From: Ahniella affigens | Lineage (GTDB): Bacteria > Pseudomonadota > Gammaproteobacteria > Xanthomonadales > Ahniellaceae | Assembly (NCBI RefSeq): GCF_003015185.1 | Contig: NZ_CP027860.1 | Span: 5,425,001 to 5,489,000 of the forward strand | DNA: 64,000 nucleotides | Direction of reading: 5' to 3' | Shown here: in pieces, positions 7,931 to 64,000 of the stretch | Numbering within the stretch: position 1 is the stretch's first letter | Layout: each line of letters starts with the position of its first letter | Position numbers and translations under genes: made by a program | Notes under the pieces: model-generated | The model's database searches: none | The model's input: the letters and a program-made list of their open reading frames with translations, nothing else | What the model was told of the DNA's origin: nothing

Positions 7931-9913
7931 TCAACTCTTCTTCTTGGCGATCTTGGTCGGCGCGCCCGTGCGACGCGGCTTGACTGATTTGGCCATCGGC
8001 TCGGCATCCCGGCTGTCCCGCTTCTCCTGTGAGCCGTCGAGCGTACGGTGCGCCAATGACAAGAGCGGGACAGTGACAATGTCCCGATAGGGCGGGGCAT
8101 TGAGGCGGTACAAATGCTGGAGCAGCACCGTTCGGTTGTCGCCGCCCCACTCCTCCCGCTGCGCTATCTGCTGACACAAGTCCGTGATCTCTTCCGCCGA
8201 CACGGGCACCTCGGTCGTCGGCAGGCTCGCCTGCTTCAACAACAGCAATTCCAGGCGTTCCGTTAATGCCCAGAACAGGTTCTGGCCTGACAGCAAATTG
8301 AGCTGTTGCGCCGTGCTGGCGTCTCGCGCCATCCAGAGCTTGTCGGCGGGGGCGCCCAGCGTGGCAGGACGGTCGTCACCCAGGGCAGTCAGGCTCAGCT
8401 GTTCCCGCAGTGCGGCCGTCAACACCCAACTGGCGCCCGGTTCGAACTGATAGCTCCGCAGGTAGGCATCGCGGGCCAGGCGCGCGTAGGTGCGACAGAG
8501 CGGTGAACTCGTTGCGCCGATCGCCACGCCCAGACGGCGATAGGTGCCGGCGCAAATGCGCTCAATCGCTGCCTGTTTGCCAGTATCGTCGCCGATCCGG
8601 CGCCTGAGGCCTTGGATTTCCTGCTCGACCTGAGCCGCCAGGAGCCGCGCTCGCTCTTCGCGCGATTCCTGCGTCGCCTCCGTTCGCACTGACATCCGCC
8701 GAGCCAGCGCCGCCAGCCGAAAATCCAGTCGCCGCAGTTCCGCACTCAGATTGACGTCGTCATGATCGTCTGCCAACGAGACATAGCACACGATGCTGGC
8801 CCAGTCGTGCGTGTGGGCCAGGCGCACCGCGAGTTGCCGGCGCAGGTCGACAAAGGCCGCGCGCGGATCGCGGGCGGCGAGCAAGTACTCGTAGAGCACG
8901 CTGGCCATGACCACCGAACCCTGAAACGTCAGCGGGAATTGGGAGCCCACGACGAGCGGAATGCCCGCTTCGTGCAGCGCATGCAGAATGCTGTCGCCAG
9001 TCGGATTCAGGGGCACCGGCACGGGGCTGCCGCTGTCGCATACCGCCAACGTGACGACGACCGGTCGTTGCAAGCGGTCGCCGCCGTTTTGCACAGGTCT
9101 GAGCGCCCGCGCGAGATTGCGACCAGTCACCTGCTCGACGCCACCGCGACCGTCGGGCAATTGCACGGTCAAGTGCGCTTCCTGCCGCTGGTCGAGCCGC
9201 CCGCCATGCGCGAGCAGATGGACATGCGTATACGCGGCGCTGGCACACGCATCATGCAACTCGCCAAGTGTCGGATTGGCCAGAATGGTGAGCATTTCCG
9301 GAATGTCGTCGTCACGATGGGCAACCCAGGGATCAATCGCTTCCCGGAGCGCCTGCACGTGGGCTTCATAGGGGACGGGTGCGCCGGGCAGATCGGCAAA
9401 CACAAACAGAATGCGCGGCCGAAACGGCGCCCGGTAGCGCGCACCCGCAGCGCGCCTTGATTCGCGCGTCAGACAGATGGGGGCACTCGACTGCAGCAGC
9501 GCATGTTGCCCGGGTCCTGGAAAGCCCGGTGGCGAAATCGCCAACTCGAAAGGCAGTAGGGCCAGTTCACTGGCCGACAGCACGAGCCTTGCATGGATGA
9601 AATTGCCGGCGGCCTGCCCGAGCGCATTGAGCAAGCCCGGAATCTCGCCGAGCCAATTGCCGAGCATCTCACCGAGCGAGCGGAGTTCATGCGCGCGACG
9701 ATCTTCAAGGTGCCTCCGCACAGCTTCGTCGGCCTGTTGATTGCCGATGTAGCGCAACGCCTGCAGGGAGGCCAGAACATCGCGATGCTCCTTCGGAAAG
9801 TGCAGGGTCGTCGCCTCGTGGTTGTCGCAGACCGCGAGATACGGCACCAACGGCGACAACAATTGATTGTGTGAAGGGCCTTGCCGCAATAGTTCGAGAT
9901 TGATCGTTTTCAT
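7931..9913 (-). CDS. CHAT-domain (caspase-like) protease
   Basis: 660 residues from the ATG at 9913 (an open frame continues to 10012 but overlaps the upstream gene). A helical N-terminal region (1-160) is followed by a caspase-HetF-associated-with-TPR domain: beta strand PRILFVFADL, catalytic His236 in HLLAHGG and catalytic Cys292 in LAVCDSG, with the downstream GIPLVVGSQFPL segment typical of CHAT. Residues about 390-600 are helical, partly coiled coil and possibly TPR-like, and the tail is basic (ends AKKKS). Both dyad residues are present, so an active cysteine protease is expected. It starts 7 bases after the stop codon of the metallophosphoesterase gene, so the two form an operon. The substrate is unknown. 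Confidence 0.85.
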   Translation of the reverse strand: MKTINLELLRQGPSHNQLLSPLVPYLAVCDNHEATTLHFPKEHRDVLASLQALRYIGNQQADEAVRRHLEDRRAHELRSLGEMLGNWLGEIPGLLNALGQAAGNFIHARLVLSASELALLPFELAISPPGFPGPGQHALLQSSAPICLTRESRRAAGARYRAPFRPRILFVFADLPGAPVPYEAHVQALREAIDPWVAHRDDDIPEMLTILANPTLGELHDACASAAYTHVHLLAHGGRLDQRQEAHLTVQLPDGRGGVEQVTGRNLARALRPVQNGGDRLQRPVVVTLAVCDSGSPVPVPLNPTGDSILHALHEAGIPLVVGSQFPLTFQGSVVMASVLYEYLLAARDPRAAFVDLRRQLAVRLAHTHDWASIVCYVSLADDHDDVNLSAELRRLDFRLAALARRMSVRTEATQESREERARLLAAQVEQEIQGLRRRIGDDTGKQAAIERICAGTYRRLGVAIGATSSPLCRTYARLARDAYLRSYQFEPGASWVLTAALREQLSLTALGDDRPATLGAPADKLWMARDASTAQQLNLLSGQNLFWALTERLELLLLKQASLPTTEVPVSAEEITDLCQQIAQREEWGGDNRTVLLQHLYRLNAPPYRDIVTVPLLSLAHRTLDGSQEKRDSRDAEPMAKSVKPRRTGAPTKIAKKKS

Positions 9914-9920
9914 GAGCGCC

Positions 9921-11333
9921 TCACAGAATCCGTGTGCTGACTGGTTTGTCCTCGCCAAAGCGCCACAGGGCGCCATGGCAGCGACCATCGGGCTCCTTGG
10001 CCAAGCGCGCATAGGACTGCCGAATCAACAGTCGCTTTTTCTTGACCAAGTCCGCGAGAGAACCGCTCTTGGTGTCCTCCAACCAGGACTTGAATGCCGG
10101 CAGGTCCTTGCGCAGGGCTGGATCGAGCCGCATCAGATAGGCCCAGGTGCCGGTGTTGAAATGGTGACCCGTCGGAATGATCAGTGAGCGATCAAAATGC
10201 GTGTGGCCGCTGACCAGAAAATCGGTGTGCTGGGCAAAGCGATCTTGAGCGCGCTCGTTGTCGGCGTCGGCGACGTCGAAACGGAAACTCTGATCCTGAT
10301 CGAGCGATTCCAGGGCTTCCTGCAGGACCCGTTCCTCGCCCTGACCGGTCAGTTTGGCGCCGATCGCCGACCAGAAACCGAGCGTGCCCGATTGCTCGGT
10401 GAGGTCATACGCGCTCACGCCTTCTGCCAGGCGCAGCTCGGCGCGGTCAAGCAGTTCGGCAGACAGACGCTTTTGCTCCGCCAGTCGCAACGCGCGCGGC
10501 TCGATGGCGCCCCCTTCCTGAGACCCCTCGCCCGAATCACCCGAGAGCAGCCCAAACGACGTACCGACCTTGCGGGCATAGGCCGCCGCCATGCTGCCCA
10601 AATGCTTCAGCACCGACCGGTCCACCGCAGCAAGCAACTTCACAGCGCCCTCTTTCTCGGGCTTCAAAACGTCTACAAATGGATGCCGCGCTTTGATCGT
10701 GTTCATGGCGTCAATGACCAGTTGCGTGCCCGCATTCGGCACCCAGCGCGTGGGGTCGGCACCGCGTTCAAACACGCCAACATTGATGCCCTGGCGAATG
10801 CGGCGAAGGACTTCAAAATCGACGACATTCCAATCGTCCACCTCATTGCCATGCACACACAGCACGCGTCGATATCCCACACGCAGGCTGAGCCCCGTGC
10901 CATCGGCGATGAAGCGGATGCGACTCTGAGCAGCCGGATCGGCACCCGCCAATCGGTGCACAAGCGCCGCCTGGACTGCATCCAGACAGAGTTCCAGATC
11001 ATGGTTGCCGAGATTGATCAGCAGAAAACGCTCGGGGGTCTGCACCAAAGCCGCCATGGCATCGAACGACGCCTTGAAGCTTGCGTCCGCCATGATCCGG
11101 TGCAACTTGTCGAGCGCACCGTGCGCATCGAAGTAGCGGGCGTTTGGCTCGGCCAGAAAGTCAATGAAATCGCCGTTGATGACCAGCGCCGCCGACAGGG
11201 CCGCATCGAGCCGCACCTGATCAATGAAGGCTGGGAAGCTCTGACTTCCTGAAAAAATCTGAAAGCCGGCAGCGCCACCGATATGAAGATCAGAGACGAC
11301 ATAGACCACATCAAACGAATCGCGCGCAACCAT
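9921..11333 (-). CDS. Calcineurin-like metallophosphoesterase paired with CHAT protease
   Basis: 470 residues from the ATG at 11333, where SFDVVYVVSDLHIGG begins soon after the start; an open frame to 11456 adds sequence unlike the family. All metallophosphoesterase motifs are visible: SDLHIG (Asp15, His17), NGDFID (Asp55), GNHD (Asn110, His111), VHGNE (His161) and SGHTH (376-379), so a two-metal active site is intact. Between residues 170 and 370 is a long, partly helical insert with charged segments, much larger than in small phosphodiesterases. The substrate (nucleotide, nucleic acid or phosphoprotein) is not evident. It is the first gene of a two-gene operon with the CHAT protease. Confidence 0.85.
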   Translation of the reverse strand: MVARDSFDVVYVVSDLHIGGAAGFQIFSGSQSFPAFIDQVRLDAALSAALVINGDFIDFLAEPNARYFDAHGALDKLHRIMADASFKASFDAMAALVQTPERFLLINLGNHDLELCLDAVQAALVHRLAGADPAAQSRIRFIADGTGLSLRVGYRRVLCVHGNEVDDWNVVDFEVLRRIRQGINVGVFERGADPTRWVPNAGTQLVIDAMNTIKARHPFVDVLKPEKEGAVKLLAAVDRSVLKHLGSMAAAYARKVGTSFGLLSGDSGEGSQEGGAIEPRALRLAEQKRLSAELLDRAELRLAEGVSAYDLTEQSGTLGFWSAIGAKLTGQGEERVLQEALESLDQDQSFRFDVADADNERAQDRFAQHTDFLVSGHTHFDRSLIIPTGHHFNTGTWAYLMRLDPALRKDLPAFKSWLEDTKSGSLADLVKKKRLLIRQSYARLAKEPDGRCHGALWRFGEDKPVSTRIL

Positions 11334-63876: not shown

Positions 63877-64000
63877 TCGGGCTAGCCCGTGCGCCCGTTC
63901 GCGGTCGACGTCTCAGACAGTACCCGGCGGTCGGAGCGATGATGTCGCCAAAACAATGCTTGCCGAATGATTCCGAATCACCCGTTTGGCCCTTGTTGTC

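What the first reader, a model, noticed from the sequence alone, without database searches (positions are those of the whole stretch)
7931..11333. Two-gene operon of a metallophosphoesterase and a CHAT caspase-like protease
Seen: the genes are 7 bases apart, both with complete catalytic motifs (SDLHIG, GNHD and GHTH in the first; His236 and Cys292 in the second), and they form an isolated two-gene unit between topA and folK. Known: CHAT proteases act as executioners in bacterial immunity (for example with type III-E CRISPR and gasdermins), and calcineurin-like phosphoesterases appear in several predicted conflict systems. Inference: the pair may be a compact signal-and-protease defence or stress-suicide module, with the phosphoesterase's 200-residue insert as sensor or regulator. 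No gasdermin-like or other obvious target gene is adjacent.
Basis: partly seen in the sequence, partly recalled or inferred. Interest (0 to 1): 0.8.

Follow-up and report, generated by a model that had tools for sequence, protein, structure and literature searches.

The report
Paired phosphoesterase and caspase-like protease genes
Two neighbouring bacterial genes, one for a metal-dependent phosphoesterase and one for a caspase-like protease, travel together between distant bacteria and probably form a self-defence or cell-suicide module.

Summary
A calcineurin-like phosphoesterase (MPE, 9921-11333) and a CHAT protease (7931-9913) lie 7 bases apart on the minus strand, catalytic motifs intact. 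The pairing is conserved: the 13 closest MPE relatives of one species-wide scan all have this CHAT type directly downstream (Burkholderiales, Bradyrhizobium, Acidobacteria, Desulfobulbaceae, Myxococcales and others), and in 72,556 plasmid records the two proteins hit the same 8, adjacent in each. The unit is rare and patchy (2 of 397 other sampled genomes of the phylum, 0 of 9 of the family) and horizontally moved, so hardly housekeeping. More distant MPEs pair with a CHAT gene in reverse order (2 loci) or with a trypsin-like protease gene (2 loci). In four lineages it sits near nucleotide-signalling or conflict genes (TPR-S, TIR, CARF6-ORC/CDC6-Dam); the window's copy sits among housekeeping genes. 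The MPE core folds like LpxH, the CHAT half like Csx29 and separase. I judge a conflict or suicide role likely (0.65). My preferred mechanism, the protease controlling the MPE by cutting its low-confidence linker, is untested inference. No PADLOC model matches this MPE, and ten literature searches showed no description of the pair.

The parts
9921..11333 (-). Metallophosphoesterase gene (MPE), 470 aa, first gene of the unit
7931..9913 (-). CHAT caspase-like protease gene, 660 aa, second gene of the unit
9914..9920 (-). 7-base spacer between MPE stop and CHAT start
11277..11294 (-). MPE metal motif SDLHIG (residues 14-19)
   Evidence: S14, D15, H17 nearly invariant (missing in one contig-end fragment)
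11160..11177 (-). MPE metal motif NGDFID (residues 53-58)
   Evidence: N53, G54, D55, D58 invariant
10998..11009 (-). MPE metal motif GNHD (residues 109-112)
   Evidence: invariant
10845..10853 (-). MPE motif HGN (residues 161-163)
   Evidence: invariant
10377..10586 (-). MPE residues 250-319: low-confidence, poorly conserved stretch inside the insert; candidate proteolysis site (inference)
   Evidence: pLDDT under 50; majority fraction 0.44 against 0.64, 0.67 and 0.75 in residues 1-160, 161-229 and 372-400; the C-terminal residues 401-470 are also low, 0.48
10197..10208 (-). MPE metal motif GHTH (residues 376-379)
   Evidence: invariant
9851..9871 (-). CHAT-protein N-terminal signature HNQLLSP (residues 15-21)
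   Evidence: H15, N16, L18, L19, S20, P21 invariant in 14 of 14; not found in the stretches held (match plus 1.5 kb) of the other 7 CHAT loci of the genome
8783..9676 (-). CHAT domain (residues 80-377)
9206..9208 (-). Catalytic His236
   Evidence: invariant in 14 of 14
9038..9040 (-). Catalytic Cys292
   Evidence: invariant in 14 of 14
7994..8764 (-). Helical C-terminal half of the CHAT protein (residues 384-640), TPR-S-like in relatives but not detectably in this copy

Best explanation
The two genes form one functional unit, a protease-phosphoesterase pair of the bacterial conflict or programmed-death kind. Shown here: conserved active sites, strict co-inheritance among close relatives, patchy horizontal spread, and a different protease partner in some distant MPEs. 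Inferred: on infection or stress a signal acts on the CHAT protein, probably through its helical, TPR-S-like C-terminal half. The activated protease then cuts the co-encoded MPE in its low-confidence linker, near a conserved GLL[SG]-type motif, and so releases or alters the MPE, an LpxH-like enzyme expected to hydrolyse a nucleotide-type phospho(di)ester. That would kill or arrest the cell. The MPE would thus hold the place that gasdermin (recalled) or Csx30 holds in other CHAT/caspase systems. My estimates: conserved two-gene unit 0.95; conflict or suicide role 0.65; this protease-to-MPE order 0.35.
For: Unit: the 13 closest MPE relatives (13 of 52 loci returned) all have the CHAT gene immediately downstream. 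Two further CHATs found without using the MPE also have it upstream. PLSDB: 8 MPE records and the same 8 CHAT records, adjacent and co-oriented in each. One copy in each of 8 host genomes at E <= 1e-10. MPE and CHAT identities covary over 14 pairs, Pearson 0.87, Spearman 0.67, Mantel p 0.0001. Mobility: CHAT proteins of an Acidobacteria MAG and of Bradyrhizobium are 62% identical, higher than all but two of the 91 comparisons; one copy on a 37.5-kb plasmid. Conflict kind: TPR-S neighbours in Paraburkholderia and Bradyrhizobium, TIR neighbours, CARF6, ORC-CDC6-like, second MPE and Dam neighbours in Methylobacterium. Protease-to-MPE order: in L022 the protease is Trypsin_2 fused to nSTAND1 and WD40, in L023 Trypsin_2 with only a sub-cut-off AAA/NACHT match, while the MPE is kept; the MPE linker is long, variable and modelled below pLDDT 50. 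Folds: Csx29 and separase for CHAT, LpxH for the MPE.
Against: No cleavage or phosphoesterase activity was or could be measured. The low-confidence linker may be only a spacer, and the MPE C-terminus is about as poorly conserved (0.48). Around the window's copy the neighbours are housekeeping genes. Several other lineages (L009, L018, L021, L084) have ordinary metabolic or transport neighbours, judged by eye from my gene calls. The window's own CHAT does not match TPR-S, its genome has only a sub-cut-off TPR-S match, and a profile-profile comparison of CHAT C-termini with neighbouring TPR-S proteins gave probability 2%. In 5 of 8 host genomes the separate TPR-S genes are not near the pair. Nucleotide-signalling neighbours fit the rival order, MPE as regulator of a signal, equally well. 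No match to either protein in the phage collection, nor in pattern scans of viral contigs.
Confidence: 0.35

Rival explanations
1. Signal-gated protease with a signal-trimming phosphoesterase: a nucleotide-derived messenger activates the CHAT protein through its TPR-S-like C-terminal half, and the MPE hydrolyses (or makes) that messenger, setting the threshold. The CHAT protease is the executioner and its target lies elsewhere.
For: TPR-S matches in 10 of 14 pair CHATs at E <= 0.1, best 5e-6; two matches inside CHAT genes over the Pfam cut-off in whole-genome search. Neighbours of the TPR-S, TIR or CARF6 kinds in four lineages. LpxH-like core, recalled as a nucleotide diphosphate hydrolase fold. 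PMC7159879 predicts the calcineurin-superfamily domain of one conflict system to be a nucleotidyl phosphodiesterase (passage).
Against: No messenger synthase is part of the unit itself. The window's CHAT has no detectable TPR-S. Profile-profile support is absent. It does not by itself explain why the MPE is kept while CHAT is replaced by a trypsin-like protease.
Confidence: 0.3
2. Toxin-antidote arrangement: one of the two enzymes is constitutively harmful and the other holds it back by binding, with catalysis of the inhibitor unimportant.
For: Tight co-inheritance, short spacer, patchy spread and a plasmid copy are typical of such pairs.
Against: Both active sites are conserved, which argues that both catalyse. 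Both proteins are large for an antidote.
Confidence: 0.12
3. A housekeeping or envelope-lipid module: the MPE is a second LpxH-like lipid enzyme and the CHAT protein a regulatory protease of metabolism or cell cycle.
For: Best structural match of the MPE is LpxH, Z 17.3, rmsd 3.6, 199 residues. The window's flanks are housekeeping genes by recall.
Against: The genome has a true LpxH elsewhere (TIGR01854, 288.7 bits) and P0002 matches no NCBIfam model at E <= 1. The MPE is missing from 9 of 9 other family genomes and the CHAT protein was not found in 395 of 397 other sampled phylum genomes (where only the three best first-look candidates of a genome were scored).
Confidence: 0.08
4. A conserved pair with a non-immune regulated function (development, predation, stress adaptation).
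For: The eight host genomes searched are fairly large, 4.5-9.4 Mb. No defence-type genes recognised near several copies (by eye).
Against: Horizontal spread and links to TIR, CARF6 and TPR-S genes in four lineages.
Confidence: 0.15

Closest known systems
Type III-E CRISPR Craspase protease Csx29 / TPR-CHAT
   Same: Caspase-like His-Cys CHAT fold; best structural match, Z 21.2, rmsd 3.9, 301 residues aligned. Its His-Cys dyad and its cutting of Csx30 are in passages of PMC9729208.
   Different: No N-terminal TPR: here CHAT is N-terminal and the helical part C-terminal. The conserved partner is a phosphoesterase.
SAVED-CHAT effector
   Same: CHAT protease; PADLOC SAVED_CHAT model matches at 3.1e-7 and fold Z 18.8, rmsd 2.7, 188 residues.
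   Different: The PADLOC match covers only profile positions 126-267 of 498, and Pfam finds no other domain in P0001.
Borvo (CHAT defence)
   Same: CHAT protease domain PF12770 listed for Borvo in a table of PMC10952713 (passage).
   Different: No MPE partner in that passage. Sequence not compared here.
Bacterial gasdermin operons (recalled)
   Same: Two-gene logic of a latent partner next to a caspase-like or trypsin protease; here MPE with CHAT, or MPE with a trypsin-like protease.
   Different: The partner is an enzyme, not a pore former; cleavage of it is not shown.
Conflict systems with calcineurin-superfamily and caspase effectors (PMC7159879, PMC8195603)
   Same: Both enzyme classes are named there as effectors of bacterial conflict systems (passages). 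A CBASS review lists calcineurin-like phosphoesterase domains as effectors joined to SAVED (passage of PMC10419184).
   Different: In the passages seen they are domains of larger systems; a two-gene MPE-CHAT unit is not in them. PMC10907252 names both a CHAT and a metallophosphatase domain among diversified conflict loci, not as a pair (passage).
LpxH (UDP-2,3-diacylglucosamine diphosphatase)
   Same: Core fold.
   Different: About 210 residues lie between the HGN and GHTH motifs; no LpxH model match; a true LpxH sits elsewhere.

Membership tests
CHAT peptidase family (PF12770) | CHAT domain over the curated cut-off | tested here: met
   66.4 bits against 24; 14 of 14 relatives match at E <= 0.1
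CHAT peptidase family (PF12770) | His-Cys catalytic dyad | tested here: met
   H236 and C292 invariant in 14 of 14
CHAT peptidase family (PF12770) | Protease activity | not testable with these tools
   needs an assay
Calcineurin-like metallophosphoesterase superfamily (PF00149) | Domain over the curated cut-off and metal-ligand motifs | tested here: met
   22.6 bits against 21.5, a narrow pass; motifs conserved
LpxH equivalog | Match to the LpxH model at its cut-off | tested here: not met
   P0002 matches no NCBIfam family at E <= 1; the only TIGR01854 match of the genome is elsewhere
Craspase TPR-CHAT (type III-E) | N-terminal TPR followed by CHAT | tested here: not met
   CHAT is N-terminal and the helical part C-terminal
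Craspase TPR-CHAT (type III-E) | gRAMP/Cas7-11 gene and CRISPR array nearby | not tested
   neighbours read by eye from the ORF list only
SAVED-CHAT effector | SAVED ligand-binding domain fused to CHAT | tested here: not met
   only CHAT in Pfam at E <= 1; PADLOC match limited to positions 126-267 of 498
TPR-S sensor proteins (PF20308) | TPR-S domain in the C-terminal half of the CHAT protein | tested here: inconclusive
   10 of 14 relatives at E <= 0.1, best 5e-6, not P0001; two over cut-off; profile-profile comparison negative
Bacterial gasdermin operon | Gasdermin gene beside the protease | not tested
   none recognised by eye in the ORF list; no gasdermin model was run
Anti-phage defence system | Protection against phage | not testable with these tools
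   needs plating assays

The most novel reading that the evidence does not exclude
A bacterial caspase-type protease has a metallophosphoesterase as its dedicated partner and substrate, so that proteolysis is converted into hydrolysis of a nucleotide or lipid phosphoester. Different protease classes (CHAT, and a trypsin-like protease fused to an NTPase) have been wired to the same phosphoesterase group, which would make 'protease-gated phosphoesterase' a general execution step in bacterial conflict systems.
Probability: 0.25. Interest if true: 0.8.

Novelty: new variant of a known kind. Interest (0 to 1): 0.6.

Why it matters
CHAT proteases are executioners whose partners define how they are triggered and what they cut. 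A small, mobile two-gene unit with a constant phosphoesterase partner gives a simple system in which trigger, order and target can be tested directly, and it points to a recurrent protease-phosphoesterase coupling that I did not find named in the resources searched.

Tried and rejected
Housekeeping or lipid role: rejected as main reading because of patchy spread and a separate LpxH. The large samples scored only the three or five best first-look candidates of a genome, so rarity may be somewhat overstated; the 48 genomes and the 10 were scored in full. Phage carriage: no match at E <= 1e-5 in 50,697 phage records; none in IMG/VR by pattern scans. Empty-site comparison: 7 of the 9 other family genomes were fetched; all 7 keep tsaD-folB-folK without the pair, but topA was not found in the 3.6-6.5 kb held beyond folK, so no clean empty site could be shown. 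Promoter and terminator scan: no promoter-like site (0.6 expected) and one terminator-like site (4.4 expected); not informative. PDB sequences searched with both profiles: nothing convincing, best E 0.043 for the MPE and 0.37 for CHAT. The 194-aa Paraburkholderia protein after CHAT has no Pfam or PADLOC match and no convincing PDB match (best E 0.072); I suspected a SLOG-like fold from a glycine motif by memory and do not claim it. Profile-profile test of CHAT C-terminus against neighbouring TPR-S: negative.

Flank comparison: 99 proteins within about 6 kb of 15 pair loci hit 83 PADLOC models at 1e-8, against 8 models for 109 proteins within about 7 kb of 15 control MPE loci. Each of the 25 pair models shown is matched by three proteins and they are kinase-type models (PD-T4-6, mad6, C3a189, MkoA), and the other 58 are not shown, so I do not use it as proof. 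I had dropped 8 of 117 called control proteins and 2 of 96 called pair proteins, and had added 5 proteins annotated on the Methylobacterium plasmid that my gene caller missed or trimmed, which include the CARF6 and Dam genes and so favour the pair side.

Not followed: the 37 more distant MPE loci (L024-L060) gave no CHAT like P0001 by tblastn, but only the upstream genes of L025 and L027 were tested with the CHAT domain model; in five of the 37 my script did not call the MPE gene. L021 is a contig-end fragment, kept in counts. L083 and L064 appear to be the same contig as L014 (same length, same match) and are not counted twice. Gene starts and neighbours in unannotated loci rest on my own simple gene caller.

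Literature: ten searches showed no paper on an MPE-CHAT pair among the rows listed; one search was wasted by ambiguous words and one search returned no paper. Papers were seen only as passages or listings. Burroughs et al. 2015, the likely prior work on TPR-S and nucleotide systems, is not held and is recalled only; subscription papers are largely outside the library.
Full report
What is there. On the minus strand of the window a 470-residue calcineurin-like metallophosphoesterase (MPE, 9921-11333) is followed after 7 bases by a 660-residue CHAT protein (7931-9913). Pfam confirms both over their cut-offs, the MPE narrowly. The flanking genes, folB and folK upstream and topA downstream, run in the same direction; these names are recalled from the sequences. 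The genome carries eight CHAT loci; in the stretches held for them (match plus 1.5 kb) the MPE protein is found only beside this one.

The pair is a conserved unit. A scan of one genome per species with the MPE returned 52 loci. The 13 best (37-42% identity, L009-L021, tblastn E 2e-61 or better) all have a relative of the CHAT protein directly downstream, with a gap of 52 bases or less or a small overlap. They come from six Burkholderiales genomes (four of them Paraburkholderia and not independent), another betaproteobacterial MAG, a Lysobacterales MAG, Bradyrhizobium, an Acidobacteria MAG, a Deltaproteobacteria MAG, a Desulfobulbaceae MAG and a Myxococcales MAG. Searching with the CHAT profile instead found two more genomes in the phylum sample, both with the MPE upstream. 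In 72,556 plasmid records MPE and CHAT each hit 8 at E <= 1e-20, the same 8, adjacent and co-oriented (four of them re-read). Seven are Paraburkholderia replicons of about 1.9-2.6 Mb, one a 37.5-kb Methylobacterium plasmid. Each of 8 host genomes searched has exactly one such CHAT at E <= 1e-10. Identities of the two proteins covary over 14 pairs (Pearson 0.87, Spearman 0.67, Mantel p 0.0001); one close Paraburkholderia couple raises the Pearson value.

It is accessory. With the CHAT profile at E <= 1e-20, 3 of 398 phylum genomes match, the own one included, 2 of 200 of the order, own included (the other appears to be the genome of L014), and 2 of 48 in the class of G022, the same two as. Searches scored only the best three or five candidates of a genome. 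With the MPE profile 1 of 10 family genomes matches, the own one. Seven relatives keep tsaD-folB-folK without the pair. The CHAT proteins of an Acidobacteria MAG and of Bradyrhizobium are 62% identical, exceeded by only two of 91 comparisons, both within Betaproteobacteria. No match in the phage collection or in pattern scans of viral contigs.

Anatomy. His236 and Cys292 are invariant in 14 CHAT proteins. The most conserved stretch of those I measured is the N-terminal one with the signature ELLRxGPxHNQLLSP (majority fraction 0.85 for residues 1-30). The signature was not found in the stretches held of the other seven CHAT loci of the genome, nor in the reverse-order loci L025 and L027. The predicted structure (pLDDT 79.5) matches Csx29/TPR-CHAT (Z 21.2, 301 residues), separase (5fc2, Z 18.8, 306 residues) and SAVED-CHAT (Z 18.8, 188 residues). 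The helical C-terminal half matches Pfam TPR-S in 10 of 14 members at E <= 0.1 (best 5e-6), not in the window's member; in whole genomes two such matches inside CHAT genes exceed the cut-off and one does not; a profile-profile comparison did not support it. The MPE core matches LpxH (Z 17.3, 199 residues), model pLDDT 69.8. Between its HGN and GHTH motifs lies an insert whose ends are conserved and whose middle (residues 250-319) is modelled below pLDDT 50 and is poorly conserved (0.44), except a GLL[SG]-type motif (G261 and L263 invariant). The C-terminal residues 401-470 are also poorly conserved (0.48).

Partner exchange. Two more distant MPEs (about 30% identity) have in place of CHAT a downstream gene for Trypsin_2 with nSTAND1 and WD40 (L022), or for Trypsin_2 with only a sub-cut-off AAA/NACHT match (L023). 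Two others (L025 Phycisphaerae, L027 Myxococcales) have a CHAT-domain gene immediately upstream, the reverse order (2.3e-5, just over the cut-off, and 7.7e-10). So this MPE group has been joined to proteases in at least three arrangements. I did not check the remaining distant loci in the same way, and many of them look unrelated.

Neighbourhood. In L010-L013 (Paraburkholderia) the unit is followed by a 194-aa protein and a TPR-S/MAP3K_TRAF_bd protein, and in L010, L011 and L013 by a TIR protein, below the Pfam cut-off but matching PADLOC ThsB at 1.1e-17. L010 has upstream an AAA ATPase with a sub-cut-off bpMoxR match and a WD40 protein; L012 has an NB-ARC-WD40 protein upstream. Of three Paraburkholderia plasmid loci read, one (L089) has a TPR-S relative nearby. 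Bradyrhizobium has two TPR-S genes downstream, the only ones of that genome found; in two Paraburkholderia genomes the only over-cut-off TPR-S gene is the neighbour; in the other five genomes searched the separate TPR-S genes lie elsewhere. The Bradyrhizobium TPR-S protein matches MAP3K5 (ASK1) of the PDB at 2.8e-6. On the Methylobacterium plasmid the next genes are CARF6, ORC-CDC6-like, a second MPE and a Dam methylase. A Myxococcales copy has a ThsB-like TIR gene about 2 kb away. By contrast the window's copy and L009, L018, L021 and L084 have ordinary neighbours, judged by eye from gene calls.

Interpretation. Shown: a two-gene, co-inherited, horizontally mobile unit with two conserved active sites. 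Inferred from established knowledge: such features together with conflict-type neighbours suggest immunity or programmed death. For the order of action I prefer protease acting on MPE, because the MPE is the constant partner while the protease class changes, because in L022 the protease is fused to an NTPase and WD40 that would act as sensor and so act first, and because the MPE has a long variable linker. The rival, a nucleotide signal gating the CHAT protease with the MPE adjusting the signal, is nearly as likely. Nothing here measures either.

Novelty. No PADLOC model matches this MPE at E <= 1, and ten literature searches showed no description of the pair. Calcineurin-superfamily and caspase domains are already named as effectors in bacterial conflict systems (passages), so I class it as a new variant of a known kind.

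Noticed in passing
L025:6279-7979 and L027:5596-8001: Distant MPEs preceded directly by a CHAT-domain gene, the reverse order of the window's pair.
   Followed up: partly
L022:3866-8239 and L023:9335-12889: MPE relatives followed by a trypsin-like protease, fused to nSTAND1-WD40 in L022 and with a sub-cut-off AAA/NACHT match in L023.
   Followed up: partly
L087:9186-14084: CARF6, ORC-CDC6-like ATPase, a second MPE with a sub-cut-off wHTH-Calcineurin_assc match, and Dam methylase beside the pair on a 37.5-kb plasmid.
   Followed up: partly
L010:11567-12148: A 194-aa protein without any convincing family match, conserved in four Paraburkholderia between CHAT and the TPR-S gene.
   Followed up: partly
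L017:4960-7347: A 795-aa protein that joins TPRs and a second metallophosphoesterase domain, on the opposite strand upstream of the pair.
   Followed up: no
L017:13797-15299: A second TPR-S gene about 2.3 kb downstream of the pair.
   Followed up: no
L024:7983-9488: MPE whose reading frame departs from the family near the last metal motif, possibly a broken gene or an assembly error.
   Followed up: no
about 2.2 kb beyond window position 64000 (G000:C1:5491194-5491508): Sub-cut-off TPR-S match inside a 952-aa open frame.
   Followed up: no
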